From: Pseudomonas sp. MYb185
GTDB lineage: Bacteria; Pseudomonadota; Gammaproteobacteria; Pseudomonadales; Pseudomonadaceae
DNA: 64,000 nucleotides
Reading direction: 5' to 3'
Assembly (NCBI RefSeq): GCF_002979975.1
Contig: NZ_PCQD01000005.1
Location: 68,071 to 132,070 of the forward strand
Position 1 is the first letter of the stretch, and each line of letters begins with the position of its first letter. The position numbers and the translations under genes are program-made. Below, one piece after another: positions 42,586-50,190 of this stretch. The notes beneath the pieces were generated by a model. The model did no database searches. It was not told where the DNA came from and saw only the letters and a list, made by a program, of their open reading frames with translations.

Positions 42586-42634
42586 GAGGCAGGGCCAGTT
42601 GCCAAACGCCAGTCCCCGCTCCCGATTTGGGAAT

Positions 42635-42694
42635 GTCGAGTTCCATCTCGACACCTGCTCCCCGGCCACCCCACTGTTCGAGATGGAACTCGAC
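42635..42694. repeat. Solitary REP doublet (REPIN-like)
   Basis: GTCGAGTTCCATCTCGA at 42635 and its exact inverted copy TCGAGATGGAACTCGAC ending at 42694, with about 26 bases between. Same arms and overall size as each unit of the tandem array at 14567-15372, about 27 kb away, but as one copy and with a different internal loop. Placed 50 bases after DUF2835. Confidence 0.88.
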
Positions 42695-42779
42695 AGGATC
42701 GCCATCGACCTTCCACACATCCGCGTAACCCGGGAGGTTCGAGCACCAGCTCGTACCAAACATTGTCCCCTCAACCGTC

Positions 42780-42801: not shown

Positions 42802-43264
42802 CCACCGGCCACACAGTAACCGCCGGAGTGGAAACCCAACCGACGACCATTCCTGAGCCTTTCCATATTGATATGGCCCCGTGCCTGCATTATGGTGAAC
42901 CCAATGCGAAGGAATGCGAGCCCGCCTGCCAGACACGCTACACAGCCCGAATTCCTCCCAGAATGATTGGCATACCTGCCGGCGATATTGCCGGTTGGGT
43001 AGGGCGGTAGCGTGTTTCTGCCTGGCATGAGGAATAGGCCGCGAAGCGTGTGGGTTGGGCGAAGGGGCGAGTGATTGTGAGGTGGTTTTGCGGGGGTAGT
43101 AATGAATTCGGGAAAAGATGAAGTCAAGCTAATACGGAATGGAGCCTGTCTTTGCTTCTAATTGTTTGATTTTATTATGACTTTGTTTGTTAGGGCTTTC
43201 CGGGAAACCGGAGTTATATCGAAGCGTCTGTTATGTATTAGTGCCGCGTGCGGTCTAATCACTG
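42802..43264. other. Intergenic region left of the cassette array; no integrase
   Basis: About 460 bases without a supported gene. The first half is GC-rich; from about 43085 the sequence becomes AT-rich like the cassettes. A 118-codon open frame on the minus strand (42771-43127) has no start signal or recognisable family. There is no room for, and no trace of, a tyrosine-recombinase integrase. The last seven bases with the next six (GTTAGAG, 43264-43270) form the first cassette core site. An attI site may lie here but has no consensus I can recognise. Confidence 0.5.
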
Positions 43265-43278
43265 TTAGAGATCACAAG

Positions 43279-43821
43279 ATGTCCCAGGCCAAAATTTCAT
43301 TTGAGCACGGAATAAAAGATGCAGAGGAGCTTTTGGCTCACTTCGACGCAATTAATTCCAATCCCCCACCTCCTAATGCGGAGGTCTTAAAACGTGCAGG
43401 GTTAGTAATGGCGCTTACTGCATGGGAAACCTACGTAGAAGATCGTGTAACCGAGGCAATGAACAAGAGACTTGCTGCTGTTGCAGGAAGCTATGTCGGC
43501 GAGTTCATTCAAAAGAAATTGCAGCAAGAACTTAAGCAATTCCACAATCCCACATCAGATAAAACAAAACGCTTATTCCTTGATTATCTCGGCGCCGACG
43601 TTACTCAAGGGTGGAACTGGGCAAATAACGACCCAGAAAAAGCCAAAAAATCACTAAACGAGTGGATATCCAAAAGAGGTGATGCTGTACATCGCTCAAA
43701 GCCAATAAACAATGGCTCACCTGCGGCCCACCTCATAAAGCGCGATGAACTCGAAAAAGTCATTCGTTTCATCAAAGAGCTGGTGAAAGCCACCGACTCA
43801 TACTTAGAATGCAATCTCTAA
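43279..43821 (+). CDS. Cassette 1: HEPN-domain protein (RiboL-PSP-HEPN-like)
   Basis: 180 residues, all-helical. Conserved features of the large HEPN family: an early AxWETYVED helix (about 47-55) and the ribonuclease motif R133-GDAV-H138 (R-x4-H) in SKRGDAVHRSKP. HEPN proteins with this motif are usually metal-independent RNases of toxin-antitoxin, abortive-infection or RNA-processing systems. The closest type I recognise is the RiboL-PSP-HEPN group. No antitoxin or nucleotidyltransferase partner is encoded in the cassette. ATG 43279 sits 8 bases after the core site and has no clear ribosome site; the frame continues upstream to 43162 across the cassette edge. Confidence 0.75.
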   Translation: MSQAKISFEHGIKDAEELLAHFDAINSNPPPPNAEVLKRAGLVMALTAWETYVEDRVTEAMNKRLAAVAGSYVGEFIQKKLQQELKQFHNPTSDKTKRLFLDYLGADVTQGWNWANNDPEKAKKSLNEWISKRGDAVHRSKPINNGSPAAHLIKRDELEKVIRFIKELVKATDSYLECNL

Positions 43822-43891
43822 CAACTGGTTAAAACCGTTCGCTTCGCTCACTGGGACGGGCTAAAGCCCGCCCCTTAACCAAACGTTAGAG
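43816..43891 (+). other. attC site 1
   Basis: Outer arms CTCTAAC (43816-43822) and GTTAGAG (43885-43891); inner arms ACTGGTTAA and TTAACCAAAC pair. The central part contains GGGACGGGCTAAAGCCCGCCCC. 76 bases. It closely resembles the interrupted attC5. The ORF 1 stop codon lies inside the outer arm. Confidence 0.92.
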
Positions 43892-43895
43892 GGGC

Positions 43896-44342
43896 ATGAT
43901 GAACTACGCACCTTACCGACTTTCCGAGGGGCTTGTTCTGGAAGAATCTGGGAGCTTGTTGCCTTGGTTTAGAAGCTTGGAGCAGCTCGCGGAAAAAGGT
44001 GGTAAACCTCTCCCCGAGAAAGGCAAACGCACTCAGCTATTTTGGGAGGCCGACGCCGTATTTGGCGGCATGAACGTATCCGTTCAAGCAATGGAAAGAG
44101 GCTTGGGCATTTTCTTCCTCGATCTAAAAAACGGGGAGAAGTTCGAGTCGGAAAAACTTGAATACGAAGCTGTATTGCAGATATTGAAAGCGAAGTTTGG
44201 AGAGCCAGCAGAAGCAGGTAGCGATGACTATGGCTATCCTTGGGTGCGTTGGCGGTGGGGCGGGGTCTGCTTGAACCTAGCGCTAGCAGAGCGCTTTATG
44301 GATTATGTCGCCTTGTCAGTTTCTAACGGAGTCGTCTCGTAA
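43896..44342 (+). CDS. Cassette 2: hypothetical protein
   Basis: 148 residues (MMNYAPYRLSEGLVLEESGSL), soluble, no signal peptide or membrane segment. AGAGGGG from the core site itself acts as ribosome site 3-6 bases before the two adjacent ATGs (43896, 43899). Contains a mixed alpha/beta pattern (LGIFFLDLKNGEKFESEKLEYEAVLQILKAKFG, WVRWRWGGVCLNLALAERF). I recognise no family. Complete cassette gene by position. Confidence 0.75.
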   Translation: MMNYAPYRLSEGLVLEESGSLLPWFRSLEQLAEKGGKPLPEKGKRTQLFWEADAVFGGMNVSVQAMERGLGIFFLDLKNGEKFESEKLEYEAVLQILKAKFGEPAEAGSDDYGYPWVRWRWGGVCLNLALAERFMDYVALSVSNGVVS

Positions 44343-44346
44343 TGCC

Positions 44347-44430
44347 CTCTAACCATCGCAGGCACGGCGACGGCTTTTCCGTTGCGGCTTCGCCTCCACT
44401 ACAAAGCCGCGCGTGCTGCGGGCGTTATAA
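44347..44430 (+). other. attC site 2
   Basis: CTCTAAC (44347-44353) to GTTATAA (44424-44430), 84 bases, with inner complementary arms ATCGCAGGCACGGCG / CGCGTGCTGCGGGCG. Nearly identical in its core to attC6, which marks a shared origin of cassettes 2 and 6. Confidence 0.92.
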
Positions 44431-44448
44431 GTCATTGAGAGTTTGTGC

Positions 44449-44697
44449 ATGGGGTTGATTGAAGCAATTATAGTTGGCCTTCAGTTCAAGCGGCTAGAAA
44501 GGCCGTTGGTGTTCGTTACTATGCTTTTTGCGCTAGTGTGCTTCGTCGCGCTCGGTATAGTAATTGTTCTTGCGGGTATTGAGCTTCTATCATCAGGCAA
44601 GGGTTTGATTCCGGCCCTGGGAGCAATTTTATTGTCGTCCGTATTTTTCGGGCTGTCCGCCGTGTGCGGCCATTTTGTCAAAAAGAGCGTGCAGTAA
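44449..44697 (+). CDS. Cassette 3: small two-helix membrane protein
   Basis: 82 residues from ATG 44449 (MGLIEAIIVGLQFKRLERP). Two hydrophobic segments (about 21-45 and 52-74) separated by a short LLSSGKGLIPAL loop; Cys residues lie within both. No recognised family. Small double-helix membrane proteins are common cassette cargo. Weak ribosome site; a TTG two codons upstream is possible. Function unknown. Confidence 0.7.
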   Translation: MGLIEAIIVGLQFKRLERPLVFVTMLFALVCFVALGIVIVLAGIELLSSGKGLIPALGAILLSSVFFGLSAVCGHFVKKSVQ

Positions 44698-44702
44698 ATG
44701 CC

Positions 44703-44784
44703 TTATAACCATACGCAGCACTACGCCGCCGCAAGCGGCGGCGGGACGCTCGTAAACTCGCGCCCGTGTGCTTAGGCGTTATAT
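44703..44784 (+). other. attC site 3
   Basis: TTATAAC (44703-44709) to GTTATAT (44778-44784), 82 bases, with a central GCCGCCGCAAGCGGCGGC hairpin and complementary arms ACGCAGCAC / GTGTGCTTAGGC (imperfect). Unlike the other attC sites in sequence. Confidence 0.88.
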
Positions 44785-44801
44785 GCCAAAAGGTCGAACC
44801 T

Positions 44802-45650
44802 ATGGGAAGCCTTAAAGAATCCTATTTAGAGTCAGACGAAGGCCGTCAGGAAAACTTGGCTGACGCTCTCGGCATATCTTGGGATGAGCTTTCGCAACTG
44901 GATTATACGGTAACGGAAAATATTTCAAATGAAGGGTTGCTATACGGTTACCTCATAACATTTAGCAGAAACTGCAGCGCAGAAATTCTGTCTAGAATAG
45001 CTGGCATTAGCAAGTCTAGAACAATAAGTCTCTCTCCATGGATATTCGAAAGAAGCTATGAAGATCAGTACGCACTCGGTGCGATTGCGCAGAATATAGA
45101 TCATCGTGCAAGTTTTTCAAATGAAATGGAATCGTCGGCTCGTCTCCAAAGTCTACAAATTGATGATCATGCGACAAGGCAGTTATTACTTCGCCAGACA
45201 TTTATCTCGATTATTGGCGCGCTTGAAACTTTTCTTTCTGATACTTTTATTTCTAAAACACTTTCATCTGAGCACTACCTTCAACAGTTTGTCAGAAACC
45301 ATCCGGAGTTCAAACAGCAAAAGATAAGTATCAGTGAGATTTACGATGTGTCAGTAAAAATTAAGGAGCGAGCCAAGACCGTCATGGTCAACACCATTTA
45401 TCATAAACTACCTACTGTTAGAGAAATGTATGCAGGGACATTCTCAATGGATTTTCCAGATATTTCGAATCTCCAGAAGTATATTCTTGTTCGCCACGAT
45501 TTGGTTCACCGGAACGGGAAAACCACTGAAGGACGCCTGGTAAATGTCAACGATAAGCTTATTGATGAGCTAAGGAATAACGCGGTAACTTTTGTTGAAG
45601 AATTAACGAATAAGTTAGAGAGAGATTTTGACGATGACTTGCCTTTCTAG
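44802..45650 (+). CDS. Cassette 4: HEPN-like protein
   Basis: 282 residues. The N-terminal half (1-115) is unrecognised. The C-terminal half has two HEPN hallmarks: IIGALETFLSDTF (conserved Glu about 142) and the R-x4-H motif R231-HDLV-H236 in VRHDLVHRNGK, as in HEPN proteins of the MAE_28990/RiboL-PSP type. Possible RNase or sensor. ATG 44802 chosen (MGSLKESYLES) after AGGTCGAACCT; the frame is open upstream into attC3. Not similar in sequence to the cassette 1 protein apart from the motif. Low GC, like the rest of the array. Confidence 0.75.
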   Translation: MGSLKESYLESDEGRQENLADALGISWDELSQLDYTVTENISNEGLLYGYLITFSRNCSAEILSRIAGISKSRTISLSPWIFERSYEDQYALGAIAQNIDHRASFSNEMESSARLQSLQIDDHATRQLLLRQTFISIIGALETFLSDTFISKTLSSEHYLQQFVRNHPEFKQQKISISEIYDVSVKIKERAKTVMVNTIYHKLPTVREMYAGTFSMDFPDISNLQKYILVRHDLVHRNGKTTEGRLVNVNDKLIDELRNNAVTFVEELTNKLERDFDDDLPF

Positions 45651-45659
45651 CTGCTTTAC

Positions 45660-45749
45660 ATATAACAATCCGCAGCAATCGCTCCCGTTGGTCGCTGGGA
45701 CAGCCAAAACGCTGCGCTTATTTGGCCGCCCTTGTGCGGGGCGTTAGAC
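45660..45749 (+). other. attC site 4
   Basis: ATATAAC (45660-45666) to GTTAGAC (45743-45749), 90 bases. Inner arms AATCCGCA.. / ..TGTGCGGGGC are partly complementary. Exact complement of the cassette 4 left core site (GTTATAT). Confidence 0.9.
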
Positions 45750-45756
45750 CTAAGCC

Positions 45757-46098
45757 ATGAAAACATCGACATTGTGCAAAGCCCTTTTAAAAGATGTATG
45801 CGACGACAATTTATCGTTTTACAGAAGCATGCTTGCCACACAAGATTTGGCCACAGTAAAAGACGATAAGTGGCGGACAATCATTGGTTTAGCCCGGGAA
45901 CTAGAACCGCACCAACAGGAAATATTTCTATCTTTTGCCCGTTTAGCAGCAGTTGATGCTATCTCAACTCTCTGCGGTGTAATTGACGGCTCAACACAGG
46001 TCGGGGGCCAGTTTGTCGCATTCTCGCTCACAGATGAGTCAGGTACAGAGCATTCTGGCTCAATGCAAGATAATTTCCTTTCTGTTGCATACCCATGA
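45757..46098 (+). CDS. Cassette 5: hypothetical protein
   Basis: 113 residues (MKTSTLCKALLKDVCDDNLSF). Soluble, mostly helical N-terminus (LARELEPHQQEIFLSFARLAAVDAISTLCGVIDGS) and a short C-terminal beta part. No recognised family. Ends 4 bases before attC5. Only 7 bases separate the core site from the ATG, so the ribosome site (TTAGACCTAAGCC) is poor. Confidence 0.7.
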   Translation: MKTSTLCKALLKDVCDDNLSFYRSMLATQDLATVKDDKWRTIIGLARELEPHQQEIFLSFARLAAVDAISTLCGVIDGSTQVGGQFVAFSLTDESGTEHSGSMQDNFLSVAYP

Positions 46099-46135
46099 AC
46101 GGTCTAACAAGTGACTGTGGTGTCAACGCCTCAAA

Positions 46136-47290
<1,155 letters not shown>

Positions 47291-47386
47291 TACAACTGGT
47301 TCAAATCGCTCACTGCGCTCGCTGGGACGGGCTAAAGCCCGCCCCTTAACCAAATGTTATACATGCAGCAGAGGTTAAAGTGACGA

Positions 47387-48112
47387 ATGTTATCCATTGA
47401 AGAATTTGAACGTATTGGTGCTGCATTTAATGCAACAAACCAACCAGTGATTCTGGACTATATTGCGGTGGTGGCGCTCAGCTGGATGGGGGCTTTCCTC
47501 GCGGCATACCTCGTGCAAAAGGCCAAGAACAGAGCAAACTCTGAAGACTTTGATAGGCTGAAATCTGAACTCAAAGAAAATACAAGATTAGTAAAAGAAA
47601 TTGAGTCGAATTTCTCGGAAAATTTTTGGATAAGGCAGCAGGTTTGGCTCAAGAAGCAGGAGTCATATGAAGTCATTCTCGGGTTGCTGCATGATATTGA
47701 AAAATACGTTTATCATCAGGTGACAGATTTTGAGGAATGGCAGTATATAAATAATCGGCACCCCTATTTTGGCTTTTACGCTCACGAAGATGTAGGTAAC
47801 AAGAAAGCGTGGGAGCGTGACAAGCAAGAGTATGAAGAGAAGAAAAGTAACCCCGAAACTGTTGCAGAATCGGAAGCACTTAAAACTCGATATGACAGAG
47901 CTTTGTCAGAGATATTTGATCATATAGATCTGAAAGCGATTTACCTCGATGACCGTGTAGAGGCTGAGATGGAAAAGCTAAAACAGTCGCTTAGCAGAAC
48001 TGATGCAGAGGAGGATTGGGAAGATCATTTCGATAGGATATCCCTAGACACGATGAGAACCATTGATGAAGTACGCAAAATTTCGCGCGCTGAACTGAAG
48101 TTGGATGCATAA
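47387..48112 (+). CDS. Cassette 6: single-pass membrane protein with coiled coil
   Basis: 241 residues. One transmembrane helix (about 27-46: VVALSWMGAFLAAYLVQ) followed directly by a charged, heptad-like coiled coil (about 48-75) and an acidic helical C-terminus. No recognised domain. The layout (short N-terminal helix, long cytoplasmic part) resembles many cassette and defence-island proteins of unknown role. The stop codon lies inside the attC6 outer arm. Confidence 0.75.
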   Translation: MLSIEEFERIGAAFNATNQPVILDYIAVVALSWMGAFLAAYLVQKAKNRANSEDFDRLKSELKENTRLVKEIESNFSENFWIRQQVWLKKQESYEVILGLLHDIEKYVYHQVTDFEEWQYINNRHPYFGFYAHEDVGNKKAWERDKQEYEEKKSNPETVAESEALKTRYDRALSEIFDHIDLKAIYLDDRVEAEMEKLKQSLSRTDAEEDWEDHFDRISLDTMRTIDEVRKISRAELKLDA

Positions 48113-48190
48113 CAATCGCAGGCACAGCGACGGCTTTTTCATTGCGGCTGCGCCTCCATTACAAAGCCGCGCGTGCTGCGGGCGTTAGGC
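48107..48190 (+). other. attC site 6
   Basis: GCATAAC (48107-48113) to GTTAGGC (48184-48190), 84 bases; differs from attC2 at only a few positions (AATCGCAGGCACAGCG versus CATCGCAGGCACGGCG). One mismatch to the cassette's left core (GTTATAC). Confidence 0.9.
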
Positions 48191-48209
48191 ATGCAGGGAG
48201 TCACTTCCA

Positions 48210-48677
48210 TTGAAATCACCTTGGCTTCAATATGAATCAAGATTGGCGAACTGGATGAAGCAGTTTGCGAATGAAAACCTCAAATTCACTAATGGCTTTC
48301 AAGCGATTCCGGGATTTCCATCTGATGGCTTTCGTGCCGATGGCCTTCTCACAAATGGCAAGGTCGTTCTGGCACTAGAGGTTGAGGTCAAGCAAACTCA
48401 CCCTGATACTAATGTCGGCAAATACTGGCTGTTAAATCAATATCAGCCCTATGAAAAAATCGTCCTTTTTCACGTATATACTCCAGAATACAAATCATAC
48501 CCTTGGCGGTTTCAGCTTGGCGAGTTCTATGCATTAAAAATGTCTCAAGAGTTACCTTTTGAGTATCACTTGCTCGATCAACGCGGGGCTGAAAATACAG
48601 ACAGCTCATTTGAACTCGTTACAGGTATTTTAGAACAAAGAATTACCAGTGAATTTGGGGCTGTGCCAAATGCCTAA
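48210..48677 (+). CDS. Cassette 7: hypothetical protein, possible PD-(D/E)xK fold
   Basis: 155 residues from TTG 48210, with GGGAG seven bases upstream; the ATG at 48191 is out of frame. FRADGLL (D44), then LALEVEVKQTH with E59-V-K61, gives the D-x14-E-x-K spacing of PD-(D/E)xK nucleases, preceded by a helix and followed by a helix (VGKYWLLNQY). That would make it a possible DNA nuclease, but no family is recognised, and the motif alone is weak evidence. Stop codon in the attC7 outer arm. Confidence 0.65.
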   Translation: MKSPWLQYESRLANWMKQFANENLKFTNGFQAIPGFPSDGFRADGLLTNGKVVLALEVEVKQTHPDTNVGKYWLLNQYQPYEKIVLFHVYTPEYKSYPWRFQLGEFYALKMSQELPFEYHLLDQRGAENTDSSFELVTGILEQRITSEFGAVPNA

Positions 48678-48761
48678 CAAACCGCTCAAATTCGTTCCGG
48701 CCACAAAAAGCGTGGCTTTCACCGGACTCGCTAACGCTGGCCGTTTAGCGGGGCGTTAGCT
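48672..48761 (+). other. attC site 7
   Basis: GCCTAAC (48672-48678) to GTTAGCT (48755-48761), 90 bases, with complementary inner parts AAACCGCTC / CGTTTAGCGGGGC and CGGCCA / TGGCCG. Exact complement to the cassette's left core GTTAGGC. Confidence 0.9.
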
Positions 48762-48776
48762 ACCAAGGACTCTTAT

Positions 48777-49571
48777 ATGTTGAAAATATTTTGGGGGATG
48801 CGCCAGGCATCAAGAGGAAAGAAATTTGGAAATGAAATAGCTGACTCAATGGCAATAAGCCGTCGCCTGTTCCACTCGGCCATAGAGGAAGGCGGGATGG
48901 GAATGCATTTAATTCTTCTAGCATCCATGAAAGATCAAGGGAAGAGCGTCATTGAGGCACGCGAAGCTATGCTTCCTTTCTTGGAAAATGGGCTTCTAGC
49001 TTTAGAGCAAAGGTTTGGCCCGCAAGCAGCGATTAACGAAGCTAAGCTTGCAGTTTTCGATTTAAATAACGCAAGTGATGAAGTTGGCATGTTATCTATA
49101 AATTCCATGCAGCAGACCAAGTATTATCATAAGCTGCGAGACGAGAAGGCGAAAAATTCATCTGTGCCAACTAGCAATGCTGCGGTATCTATCATGCTGT
49201 TTCTACTGCGCACAGCTCGAACTCTCGGTAATAAAGTATGGGTTGACTTGGATCTGGTTACGGAGCAGGCGGGTGTTTCTTTTGGTCAGATTAATATTGA
49301 GTGCATGAGCTTGGAAGAGAGCGGGCTCGTTGAATTTGATGTTATGGAAGGGGTTAGAGTTACTGATGAGGGCTTGTATATTGCCCGGAAGCTAAAGGAC
49401 TGGCTGGAGTGGAGTGAAAAGGATAATCATGAAACTGCCTCTCATGGGAAAGGGCGGGACGATGAAAACAAAACACTCCAAAAGCCAATGTTTAGTTTAT
49501 GGAATGTTGTGCTGTATCTATTTATGGCATCTGCGATTCTGAAGATGGTAGCTCATTTTGTTCGAGGGTGA
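48777..49571 (+). CDS. Cassette 8: hypothetical protein with winged-helix-like part and C-terminal membrane anchor
   Basis: 264 residues. The first 130 are helical. Residues about 130-210 (VSIMLFLLRTARTLGNKVWVDLDLV ... VEFDVMEGVRVTDEGLYIARKLKDWL) have the order of a winged helix, with a VRVTDEG turn like those in MarR-type wings. A charged linker follows, and a C-terminal transmembrane helix (about 241-260). Tail-anchored proteins with a sensor domain are seen in stress or defence systems, but no family is recognised. Begins 15 bases after the core site. Confidence 0.72.
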   Translation: MLKIFWGMRQASRGKKFGNEIADSMAISRRLFHSAIEEGGMGMHLILLASMKDQGKSVIEAREAMLPFLENGLLALEQRFGPQAAINEAKLAVFDLNNASDEVGMLSINSMQQTKYYHKLRDEKAKNSSVPTSNAAVSIMLFLLRTARTLGNKVWVDLDLVTEQAGVSFGQINIECMSLEESGLVEFDVMEGVRVTDEGLYIARKLKDWLEWSEKDNHETASHGKGRDDENKTLQKPMFSLWNVVLYLFMASAILKMVAHFVRG

Positions 49572-49586
49572 AATTGCAGGGTGAGC

Positions 49587-49634
49587 TTCTAACAAGGCAT
49601 TGCAGCGGACGAGCCGCTGAATGCGGCGTTAGGC
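49587..49634 (+). other. attC site 8 (short)
   Basis: TTCTAAC (49587-49593) to GTTAGGC (49628-49634), only 48 bases. Inner arms GCATTGCAGCGG / CCGCTGAATGC fold into a simple hairpin with an ACGAG loop. Two mismatches between the outer arm and the cassette's left core (GTTAGCT). Confidence 0.82.
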
Positions 49635-49678
49635 TGCACCCAAATAATAACGACGATTCGCCCAAGAGAAGCAGTGAT

Positions 49679-50140
49679 ATGATCCTTGAGTTTAGATGGC
49701 ACCGATTAGAGTCTTTCTCCGCATTGGAGTTACACAACATTATCAAGGCTCGCGAATCGGTTTTTGTTGTAGAGCAAAATTGTCCCTACCAAGAAACTGA
49801 CGATATGGACCTTCATGCTTGGCACTTATCTGTCTTCTTGAACGATGAGCTTGCGGCTTATGCAAGGGTTGTTGATCCTGGAGTCAAATACAGCCAGCCT
49901 TCTATCGGTCGCGTTATGACCCTTAAGAACTTCCGCGAGCTGAGAATCGGCCGCCAACTAATGAAAGAAACTATAAGATTCACCGAGCTAAAATTTCCTG
50001 GCTGCGGGATAAAAATTGGGGCGCAACTTTATTTGCAGAAATTTTACGAATCACTGGGTTTTCAGTCTGTCGGAGAACCATACGATGAGGATGGCATACC
50101 TCATGTTGATATGGTTAAAGAGCCCGTCAGTGCAGCCTAG
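49679..50140 (+). CDS. Cassette 9: ElaA-like GNAT acetyltransferase
   Basis: 153 residues from ATG 49679. ElaA-type N-acetyltransferase: LHNIIKARESVFVVEQNCPYQETDDMDLHAWHL is the family's characteristic start, IGRVMTLKNFRELRIGRQLMKETI is the acetyl-CoA pyrophosphate loop (R-x2-x2-G-x-x-L with IGRQL), and YLQKFYESLGFQSVGEPYDEDGIPHVDM is the usual end. Substrate unknown. GNATs are frequent cassette cargo. The frame is open upstream into cassette 8 but that is not coding. Confidence 0.9.
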   Translation: MILEFRWHRLESFSALELHNIIKARESVFVVEQNCPYQETDDMDLHAWHLSVFLNDELAAYARVVDPGVKYSQPSIGRVMTLKNFRELRIGRQLMKETIRFTELKFPGCGIKIGAQLYLQKFYESLGFQSVGEPYDEDGIPHVDMVKEPVSAA

Positions 50141-50190
50141 CAATTCACTCAAGCCGACGCCGCTTCGCGGCTTGGCTGCGCCTCAACTCC
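50135..50190 (+). other. attC site 9, degenerate last site
   Basis: GCCTAGC (50135-50141; one mismatch from GCCTAAC) followed by AATTCACTCAAGCCGACGCC and GCTTCGCGGCTTGGC, a sequence typical of attC left halves and loops. No GTTRRRY core follows; the sequence runs straight into the stop of the slipin gene at 50191. The site looks decayed or truncated and marks the right end of the array. Confidence 0.75.

What the first reader, a model, noticed from the sequence alone, without database searches (positions are those of the whole stretch)
43265..50190. Nine-cassette integron array without an integrase
The sequence shows nine ORF-plus-attC units, all in one direction. For each, the left GTTRRRY core and right outer arm are complementary (exact in six, one mismatch in two, two in one), a test that chance cannot easily pass because those bases are joined only in the circular cassette. 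The attC sites are diverse (48-90 bases) with only two clear pairs (1/5 and 2/6). That suggests cassettes gathered from different pools, not a homogeneous sedentary array. No integrase lies in the 460 bases to the left, and none elsewhere in the window.
Basis: partly seen in the sequence, partly recalled or inferred. Interest (0 to 1): 0.82.

Follow-up and report, generated by a model that had tools for sequence, protein, structure and literature searches.

The report
Integron copy that lost its integrase
This stretch is a second copy of a bacterium's gene-collecting system (an integron) that lost its enzyme gene but kept its docking site and control region; related bacteria keep several such enzyme-less copies at fixed chromosomal places, so one enzyme may fill many of them, and many carry a switch known from long surface-sugar operons.

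Summary
In detail: nine cassettes, one orientation, real attC sites. Two things were missed. (1) Cassette 5's attC is split by a 1,185-bp IS110-type element. (2) The array is headed by an attI (43209-43267), 92% identical to the attI beside the genome's one intact intI on another contig; collinear blocks beyond it show an integron whose intI was deleted.

This is a pattern. attI-like DNA occurs 43 times in 23 of 37 Halopseudomonas genomes, 2-4 copies in 11; of 41 copies fetched, 30 have no intI beside them. Some intI-less platforms sit at orthologous places (six species beside valS). Homology stops at the GTT crossover and first cassettes differ, so cassettes changed after intI was gone: best read as one integrase acting in trans.

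The platform also carries a predicted promoter and an exact 12-base ops element (43003-43014), the recruitment site of the antiterminator RfaH: exact in 14 of 30 intI-less platforms, never reversed; the genome encodes RfaH. Arrays are predicted to be RfaH-antiterminated operons, which my literature searches did not find described. Trans activity and RfaH dependence are inferred; many genomes keep platforms without a working cognate intI. New variant of a known kind.

The parts
42868..42896 (+). predicted array promoter TTGATA-17-TATGGT
   Evidence: 9 of 12 consensus bases; 1 found, 0.5 expected in shuffles; a TATG[GT]T hexamer sits 102-114 nt upstream of ops in 20 of 21 Halopseudomonas platforms with an exact ops
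43003..43014 (+). ops element GGCGGTAGCGTG (RfaH recruitment site)
   Evidence: exact 12-mer; the only exact 11-mer in 64 kb; ops12 sequence in PMC5995543 (passages)
43015..43095 (.). 81-bp stretch at the place where the C5 integron carries intI (deletion scar)
   Evidence: no intI remnant found by tblastn upstream of this attI
43096..43137 (.). conserved box that lies just upstream of intI in the C5 locus (intI-promoter side)
   Evidence: 81% identical to C5; present in most intI-less platforms of the alignment
43209..43267 (+). attI site
   Evidence: 54 of 59 bases identical to the attI beside intI on C5; GGTCTAATCACTGTTRRRY (up to 2 mismatches) once in the window, none in 100 shuffles
43265..43885 (+). 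cassette 1, HEPN_RiboL-PSP protein (ORF 43279-43821); attC 43816-43891
43886..44424 (+). cassette 2, unknown protein with a sub-cutoff PspAB match (ORF 43896-44342); attC 44347-44430
44425..44778 (+). cassette 3, small unknown protein (ORF 44449-44697); attC 44703-44784
44779..45743 (+). cassette 4, second HEPN-like protein, below Pfam cut-off (ORF 44802-45650); attC 45660-45749
45744..47356 (+). cassette 5, unknown protein (ORF 45757-46098); attC split: 46102-46110 and 47296-47362
   Evidence: 76 bp without the insert, as attC1
46111..47295 (-). IS110-family insertion sequence, transposase 46136-47089, inside attC of cassette 5 (ends uncertain by about 3 bases)
   Evidence: NF033542, 227.5 bits over cut-off 140; two further copies in G018, both after CTAACAA
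47357..48184 (+). cassette 6, unknown protein (ORF 47387-48112); attC 48107-48190
48185..48756 (+). cassette 7, unknown protein (ORF 48210-48677); attC 48672-48762
48757..49628 (+). cassette 8, unknown protein (ORF 48777-49571); attC 49587-49634
49629..50190 (+). cassette 9, GNAT acetyltransferase (ORF 49679-50140); attC from 50135, right core lost

Best explanation
The interval is an integron platform whose intI gene was deleted while promoter, ops leader, attI and cassettes stayed. Shown: attI and intI flanks are homologous and collinear with the genome's intact integron on contig C5; such intI-less platforms occur repeatedly, some at orthologous places, most with attC arrays. Inferred: one integrase, in this genome the intact IntI on C5, inserts and removes cassettes at the remote attI sites in trans. 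Inferred: transcription starts downstream of the promoter at 42868-42896, RNA polymerase takes up RfaH at ops about 100 nt later and reads through attI and the array without Rho-dependent polarity; at the intI locus the same promoter and ops lie beyond the 3' end of intI, so RfaH would also carry transcription through the untranslated antisense of intI.
For: attI and three further collinear blocks against C5 (the 18-base block that holds ops is weak alone, E 0.011). One intact intI, TIGR02249 396 bits over cut-off 265. 43 attI hits in 23 of 37 Halopseudomonas genomes, 11 genomes with 2-4; 22 of 29 intI-less platforms have attCs, 80 in all, each downstream of attI and in its direction. Orthologous intI-less sites: valS 6 species, typA 3, another 3, dnaE2-like 2, others 2; site means of identity before the core 0.70-1.00, after it 0.40-0.49, random pairs 0.46. 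attI varies less than its spacer at sites B (0.24 v 0.64 of columns), D (0.27 v 0.70) and C (0.05 v 0.28). G205 of another genus: open intI whose own attI is cut short, no attC in the 16 kb fetched there, four complete attI copies elsewhere, three with attCs. ops exact in 14 of 30 intI-less platforms, 0 reversed; permuted 11-mers mean 0.008, maximum 3 of 30; none in 442 kb downstream of attI, both strands. RfaH encoded, 175.6 bits over cut-off 144.5.
Against: The window's own site is seen in one genome only, so its array could be a relic. Of 23 genomes with attI hits, 8 have a full, open intI of at least 79% identity to C5's (9 with G036 at 75%); most others have broken or no such intI. G018's resident intI has a different attI type from its two remote platforms. 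At site B attI is no less variable than the left module (0.27) or the far flank (0.22), and it stands out little at sites G and H. 16 of 30 intI-less Halopseudomonas platforms lack an exact ops, and all 16 g14 platforms lack it. Of the four RfaH side chains said to contact ops, K10 and R73 are kept but H20 and R23 are Asn. The promoter hexamer is found at 1 of 6 further ops-bearing intI loci. 13 exact ops 11-mers occur genome-wide, so some may be chance.
Confidence: 0.66

Rival explanations
1. A relic: the platform lost intI and has been inert since; array and attI are decaying remains.
For: IS in one attC, last attC truncated; many genomes keep platforms without a working cognate intI; the window site was seen in one genome only.
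Against: At shared intI-less sites the first cassettes differ between species although the intI-less junction is shared, with the break at the core; attI varies less than its spacer at sites B, C and D.
Confidence: 0.25
2. A cassette cluster made by off-target insertion of cassettes at a non-attI (attG-type) site.
For: A proposed route to such clusters (PMC8618304, passages); an intact IntI is in the genome.
Against: The array begins at an attI with intI-flank homology beyond it.
Confidence: 0.03
3. The ops match is a pause or leader motif that does not recruit RfaH; promoter and leader are only an ordinary cassette promoter.
For: Two of four ops-contacting side chains differ in this RfaH; ops is absent from other lineages that have such platforms.
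Against: Exact, oriented and at a constant distance from a promoter-like hexamer; the genome also has ops in front of a frame that reads as Wzc and just downstream of rfaH; in 7 genomes with ops at the intI locus all 12 remote platforms with an unbroken attI have it.
Confidence: 0.35

Closest known systems
Sedentary chromosomal integron
   Same: attI, attC cassettes, an IntI of the TIGR02249 family in the genome
   Different: intI and this array are on separate contigs; several attI platforms per genome
CALIN (cluster of attC sites lacking an integrase); conserved-locus CALINs of Xanthomonas (PMC12444791, passages)
   Same: attC array without neighbouring intI; in Xanthomonas also at conserved places, and said to be mobilisable in trans
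   Different: here the clusters are headed by attI plus promoter and leader; the passages read do not report an attI at the Xanthomonas CALINs
RfaH/ops operons (capsule, conjugation and other long operons; PMC6391919, PMC7593976, passages)
   Same: ops 12-mer in an untranslated leader; RfaH encoded elsewhere
   Different: the operon is an exchangeable integron cassette array; dependence untested
Delta-attI cassettes of mobile integrons (PMC12901181, abstract)
   Same: extra attI copies that IntI can use
   Different: those are attI pieces inside mobile arrays, not whole platforms at chromosomal sites
IS1111-attC insertion sequences (recalled)
   Same: IS110-type element inside an attC; three copies follow the same CTAACAA motif
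   Different: not compared with named members

Membership tests
Integron | intI beside attI | tested here: not met
   no match in the window; TIGR02249 match over cut-off only on C5
Integron | attI | tested here: met
   54 of 59 bases to the C5 attI; recombination itself not tested
Integron | array of cassettes with attC sites | tested here: met
CALIN | two or more attC without a nearby intI | tested here: met
RfaH-controlled operon | ops 12-mer in a leader, sense strand | tested here: met
   that the stretch is a transcribed leader is predicted
RfaH-controlled operon | RfaH in the genome | tested here: met
   TIGR01955, 175.6 bits, cut-off 144.5
RfaH-controlled operon | ops-contacting residues K10, H20, R23, R73 conserved | tested here: inconclusive
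   K10 and R73 kept, H20 and R23 are Asn
RfaH-controlled operon | expression depends on RfaH | not testable with these tools
   needs an experiment
IS1111-attC group | IS110-family transposase and insertion inside attC | tested here: met
   window copy
IS1111-attC group | sequence relation to named members | not tested
   no comparison made

The most novel reading that the evidence does not exclude
Halopseudomonas runs a distributed integron: one integrase fills several integrase-free attI platforms at fixed chromosomal sites, each an operon whose collected, presumably promoterless cassettes are read to the end because RfaH is loaded at an ops element in a conserved leader. The window shows one such platform made by deletion of intI.
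Probability: 0.45. Interest if true: 0.85.

Novelty: new variant of a known kind. Interest (0 to 1): 0.74.

Why it matters
Integrase-less cassette clusters have been proposed to be degraded integrons, and attI is not detected by the standard finder outside class 1 (PMC9024848, passages). Here many turn out to be attI-bearing platforms, several kept at fixed places, so one integrase may manage several arrays. And an antitermination leader would answer how long promoterless arrays can be expressed beyond the first cassettes. Both are directly testable.

Tried and rejected
Off-target insertion at a non-attI site: rejected because the array begins at attI with intI-flank homology. Left module as a transposon end: common left boundary near -345 at several Halopseudomonas sites but near -170 in genus g14; I did not establish a target duplication or terminal repeat, so how platforms multiply stays open. 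Conserved right end of arrays: the window's tail resembles attC-type DNA at a few other platforms. Identical cassettes on two platforms of one genome: none among matches of 250 bp or more at E <= 1e-20; two similar stretches, 81% in G007 and 72% in G022. Comparison at the same gap: not possible. The genome-wide attC search scored at most 126 candidates per genome and is not used as a count. Rfam at gathering scores found only a cobalamin riboswitch.

Literature, listings unless said: RfaH with integron, 18 papers, 15 listed, none on this; antitermination, polarity and cassette-array terms, 32 papers, 15 listed; Halopseudomonas with integron, one, unrelated; orphan or multiple attI phrases, three, none on this; broader integron searches, 234, 21, 91, 45 and 19 papers, of which 25, 21, 20, 20 and 8 listed. 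Papers of subscription journals are mostly not held.
Full report
Observation. Searches show nine ORF-plus-attC units on the + strand at 43264-50190. The circular-cassette test gives mismatches 0,0,0,0,0,1,0,2,1, matched by 4 of 362,880 permutations. A covariance model of seven sites finds eight hits, all inside the interval and on +; seven of these trained it, one did not. At E <= 1 the same model finds 77 sites in 21 other loci. Bottom strands of sites 1, 2, 6 and 8 fold better than shuffles (z -4.7, -2.9, -2.8, -4.2), as does the right part of site 5 (-3.3); sites 3, 4, 7 and 9 do so weakly or not (-2.0, -1.2, -1.6, -0.4). Cassette 5's attC is split by an IS110-family element, 46111-47295; two copies in G018 follow the same CTAACAA motif.

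What heads the array. Window 43209-43267 is 92% identical (54 of 59) to the attI next to the only intact intI of the genome (G000:C5:78531-79493). Three more blocks are collinear: two correspond to DNA beyond the 3' end of intI on C5 (E 2e-5, and 18 exact bases at E 0.011) and one to DNA just upstream of intI (E 8e-5); between them the window has 81 bp where C5 has 1,013. So this is an integron that lost intI. The left blocks also match the intI loci of G005 and G007 over about 150 bp at 70%.

A pattern in the genus. A search with the window's attI gives 43 hits in 23 of 37 genomes, 11 genomes having 2-4. I fetched 41 of the 43 (not those of G028 and G036): 11 lie beside a full or broken intI; 30 have none in up to 3.5 kb upstream, two of these with under 450 bp to look at (G033_C55, G002_C21). 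Upstream sequences form clusters: the 11 intI loci; six species beside valS; three beside typA; three sharing another neighbourhood; two beside a frame that reads as dnaE2; two beside alkA-like genes; G009/G010; ten single, the window among them (gene names by my reading of translations). G002 and G008 form a further pair by their last 100 bp and their downstream DNA. G007 and G018 are single-contig genomes, so these are not assembly artefacts. Of 29 intI-less platforms (G033_C55, probably the intI locus cut by a contig end, left out) 22 carry attCs at E <= 0.01, 80 in all, each downstream and co-oriented. Of the seven without, L144, L145, L150 and L155 end within 850 bases of attI, L103 has a broken attI, and L114 and L116 have none in over 14 kb.

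Trans action. At the shared intI-less sites the mean identity of the last 100 bp before the core is 0.70-1.00 (single pairs 0.68-1.00) and of the next 100 bp 0.40-0.49 (pairs up to 0.51), the level of random pairs (mean 0.46, maximum 0.54). The six valS platforms share the intI-less junction, so intI was probably gone before these species split, yet their first cassettes differ. A precise break at GTT is what IntI at that attI would leave. attI varies in fewer columns than the spacer beside it at sites B, D and C, little at G and H; at B it is no less variable than the left module or far flank. A LexA-type box CTGT-8-ACAG is at 8 of 11 intI platforms and 0 of 30 others. Against: 8 of the 23 genomes with attI hits have a full, open intI of at least 79% identity to C5's, 9 with G036, and G018's resident intI has another attI type. 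The window's own array cannot be dated, as its place was seen once.

Outside the genus. The same IntI clade (71-76%) occurs in genera g14, g15 and g16. In g15, five of five genomes give one attI hit, at intI, with one species' attI as query. In g14, five of six genomes searched have two or more attI places (reverse-strand hits at the same places reflect an inverted repeat in attI). G205 is telling: its intI is open, its attI is cut short and followed by a frame that reads as a transposase, no attC lies in the 16 kb fetched there, and four complete attI copies lie elsewhere, three followed by attCs.

The ops element. The left block contains GGCGGTAGCGTG at 43003-43014, the ops12 of RfaH. An exact 11-mer stands 195-261 nt upstream of the core in 14 of 30 intI-less Halopseudomonas platforms, 0 in reverse; permuted 11-mers average 0.008 platforms, maximum 3 of 30; none in 442 kb downstream of attI, both strands. 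At intI loci it lies about 20-35 bp beyond the 3' end of intI, antisense to it: 7 of 11 exact among site A loci, exact also in G033, G036, G018, G026, G027 and in both g16 genomes; not in G024, G041, the five g15 or six g14 intI loci. TATG[GT]T sits 102-114 nt upstream in 20 of 21 platforms, mostly with a hexamer 17 nt before it (TTGATA in the window, TTGAAA at 6 of 7 intI loci, weaker at others), but in only 1 of 6 further ops-bearing intI loci. In seven genomes with ops at intI, all 12 remote platforms with an unbroken attI have it exactly, and the broken one on G000 C17 has one mismatch; in G010, G011 and G019 neither intI locus nor platforms have it exactly; G018 is an exception, with ops at its intI only. 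The genome encodes RfaH, with another ops just downstream of it and one before a frame that reads as Wzc. Of 13 exact 11-mers genome-wide some may be chance; the reversed control pattern gave 1. RfaH has K10 and R73 but Asn at H20 and R23. About 60% of Pseudomonadaceae lack RfaH (PMC7593976, passages), so the combination is not a given.

Mechanism. Transcription is predicted to start just after 42896, pause at ops about 100 nt on, take up RfaH and run through attI and the array; RfaH opposes Rho-dependent polarity and helps translation of messages with poor ribosome sites (PMC6391919, passages). At the intI locus it would have to cross about 1 kb of untranslated antisense intI, where antitermination would be useful. 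These steps are inferred.

Verdict. An intI-deleted integron platform, one of a family of attI platforms that one integrase probably serves in trans, with a predicted RfaH-dependent leader. A new variant of a known kind; how platforms multiply is not known.

Noticed in passing
46111-47295: IS110-family element inside attC of cassette 5; two copies about 90% identical to it lie in G018 behind the same CTAACAA motif and are identical to each other.
   Followed up: partly
43279-43821 and 44802-45650: Two cassettes encode HEPN_RiboL-PSP-type proteins, one above and one below the Pfam cut-off; no PADLOC match.
   Followed up: partly
2726-2969: Cobalamin riboswitch, 87 bits.
   Followed up: no
42630-42715: Inverted repeat between gdhB and the platform; similar sequence is repeated at the start of contig C4.
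   Followed up: no
L226 and other g14 attI loci: These attI sites are near-perfect inverted repeats (TTAGATGGAAGGC ... GCCTTCCATCTAA) with the crossover core outside the repeat.
   Followed up: partly
L225 (G051:C6:41291-41350): A g16 genome has an attI-like hit on another contig than its intI, whose own attI differs.
   Followed up: no
L151 and L154: G010 contig C22 and the single-contig genome G009 share 3,040 bp at 100% and 1,789 bp at 99.9%: contamination or very recent transfer.
   Followed up: no
L120 and L115: An 816-bp array segment is 99.3% identical between G005 and G022, whose upstream flanks are about 90% identical: recent cassette transfer between species.
   Followed up: no
43096-43137 and equivalents in other loci: The intI-promoter-side box with AGTCAAGCGAATACG stays recognisable in most platforms that have no intI; its role there is unknown.
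   Followed up: partly
L103 (G000:C17:3363-3423): A fourth attI-like stretch in this genome lacks the crossover core and has no attC after it.
   Followed up: partly
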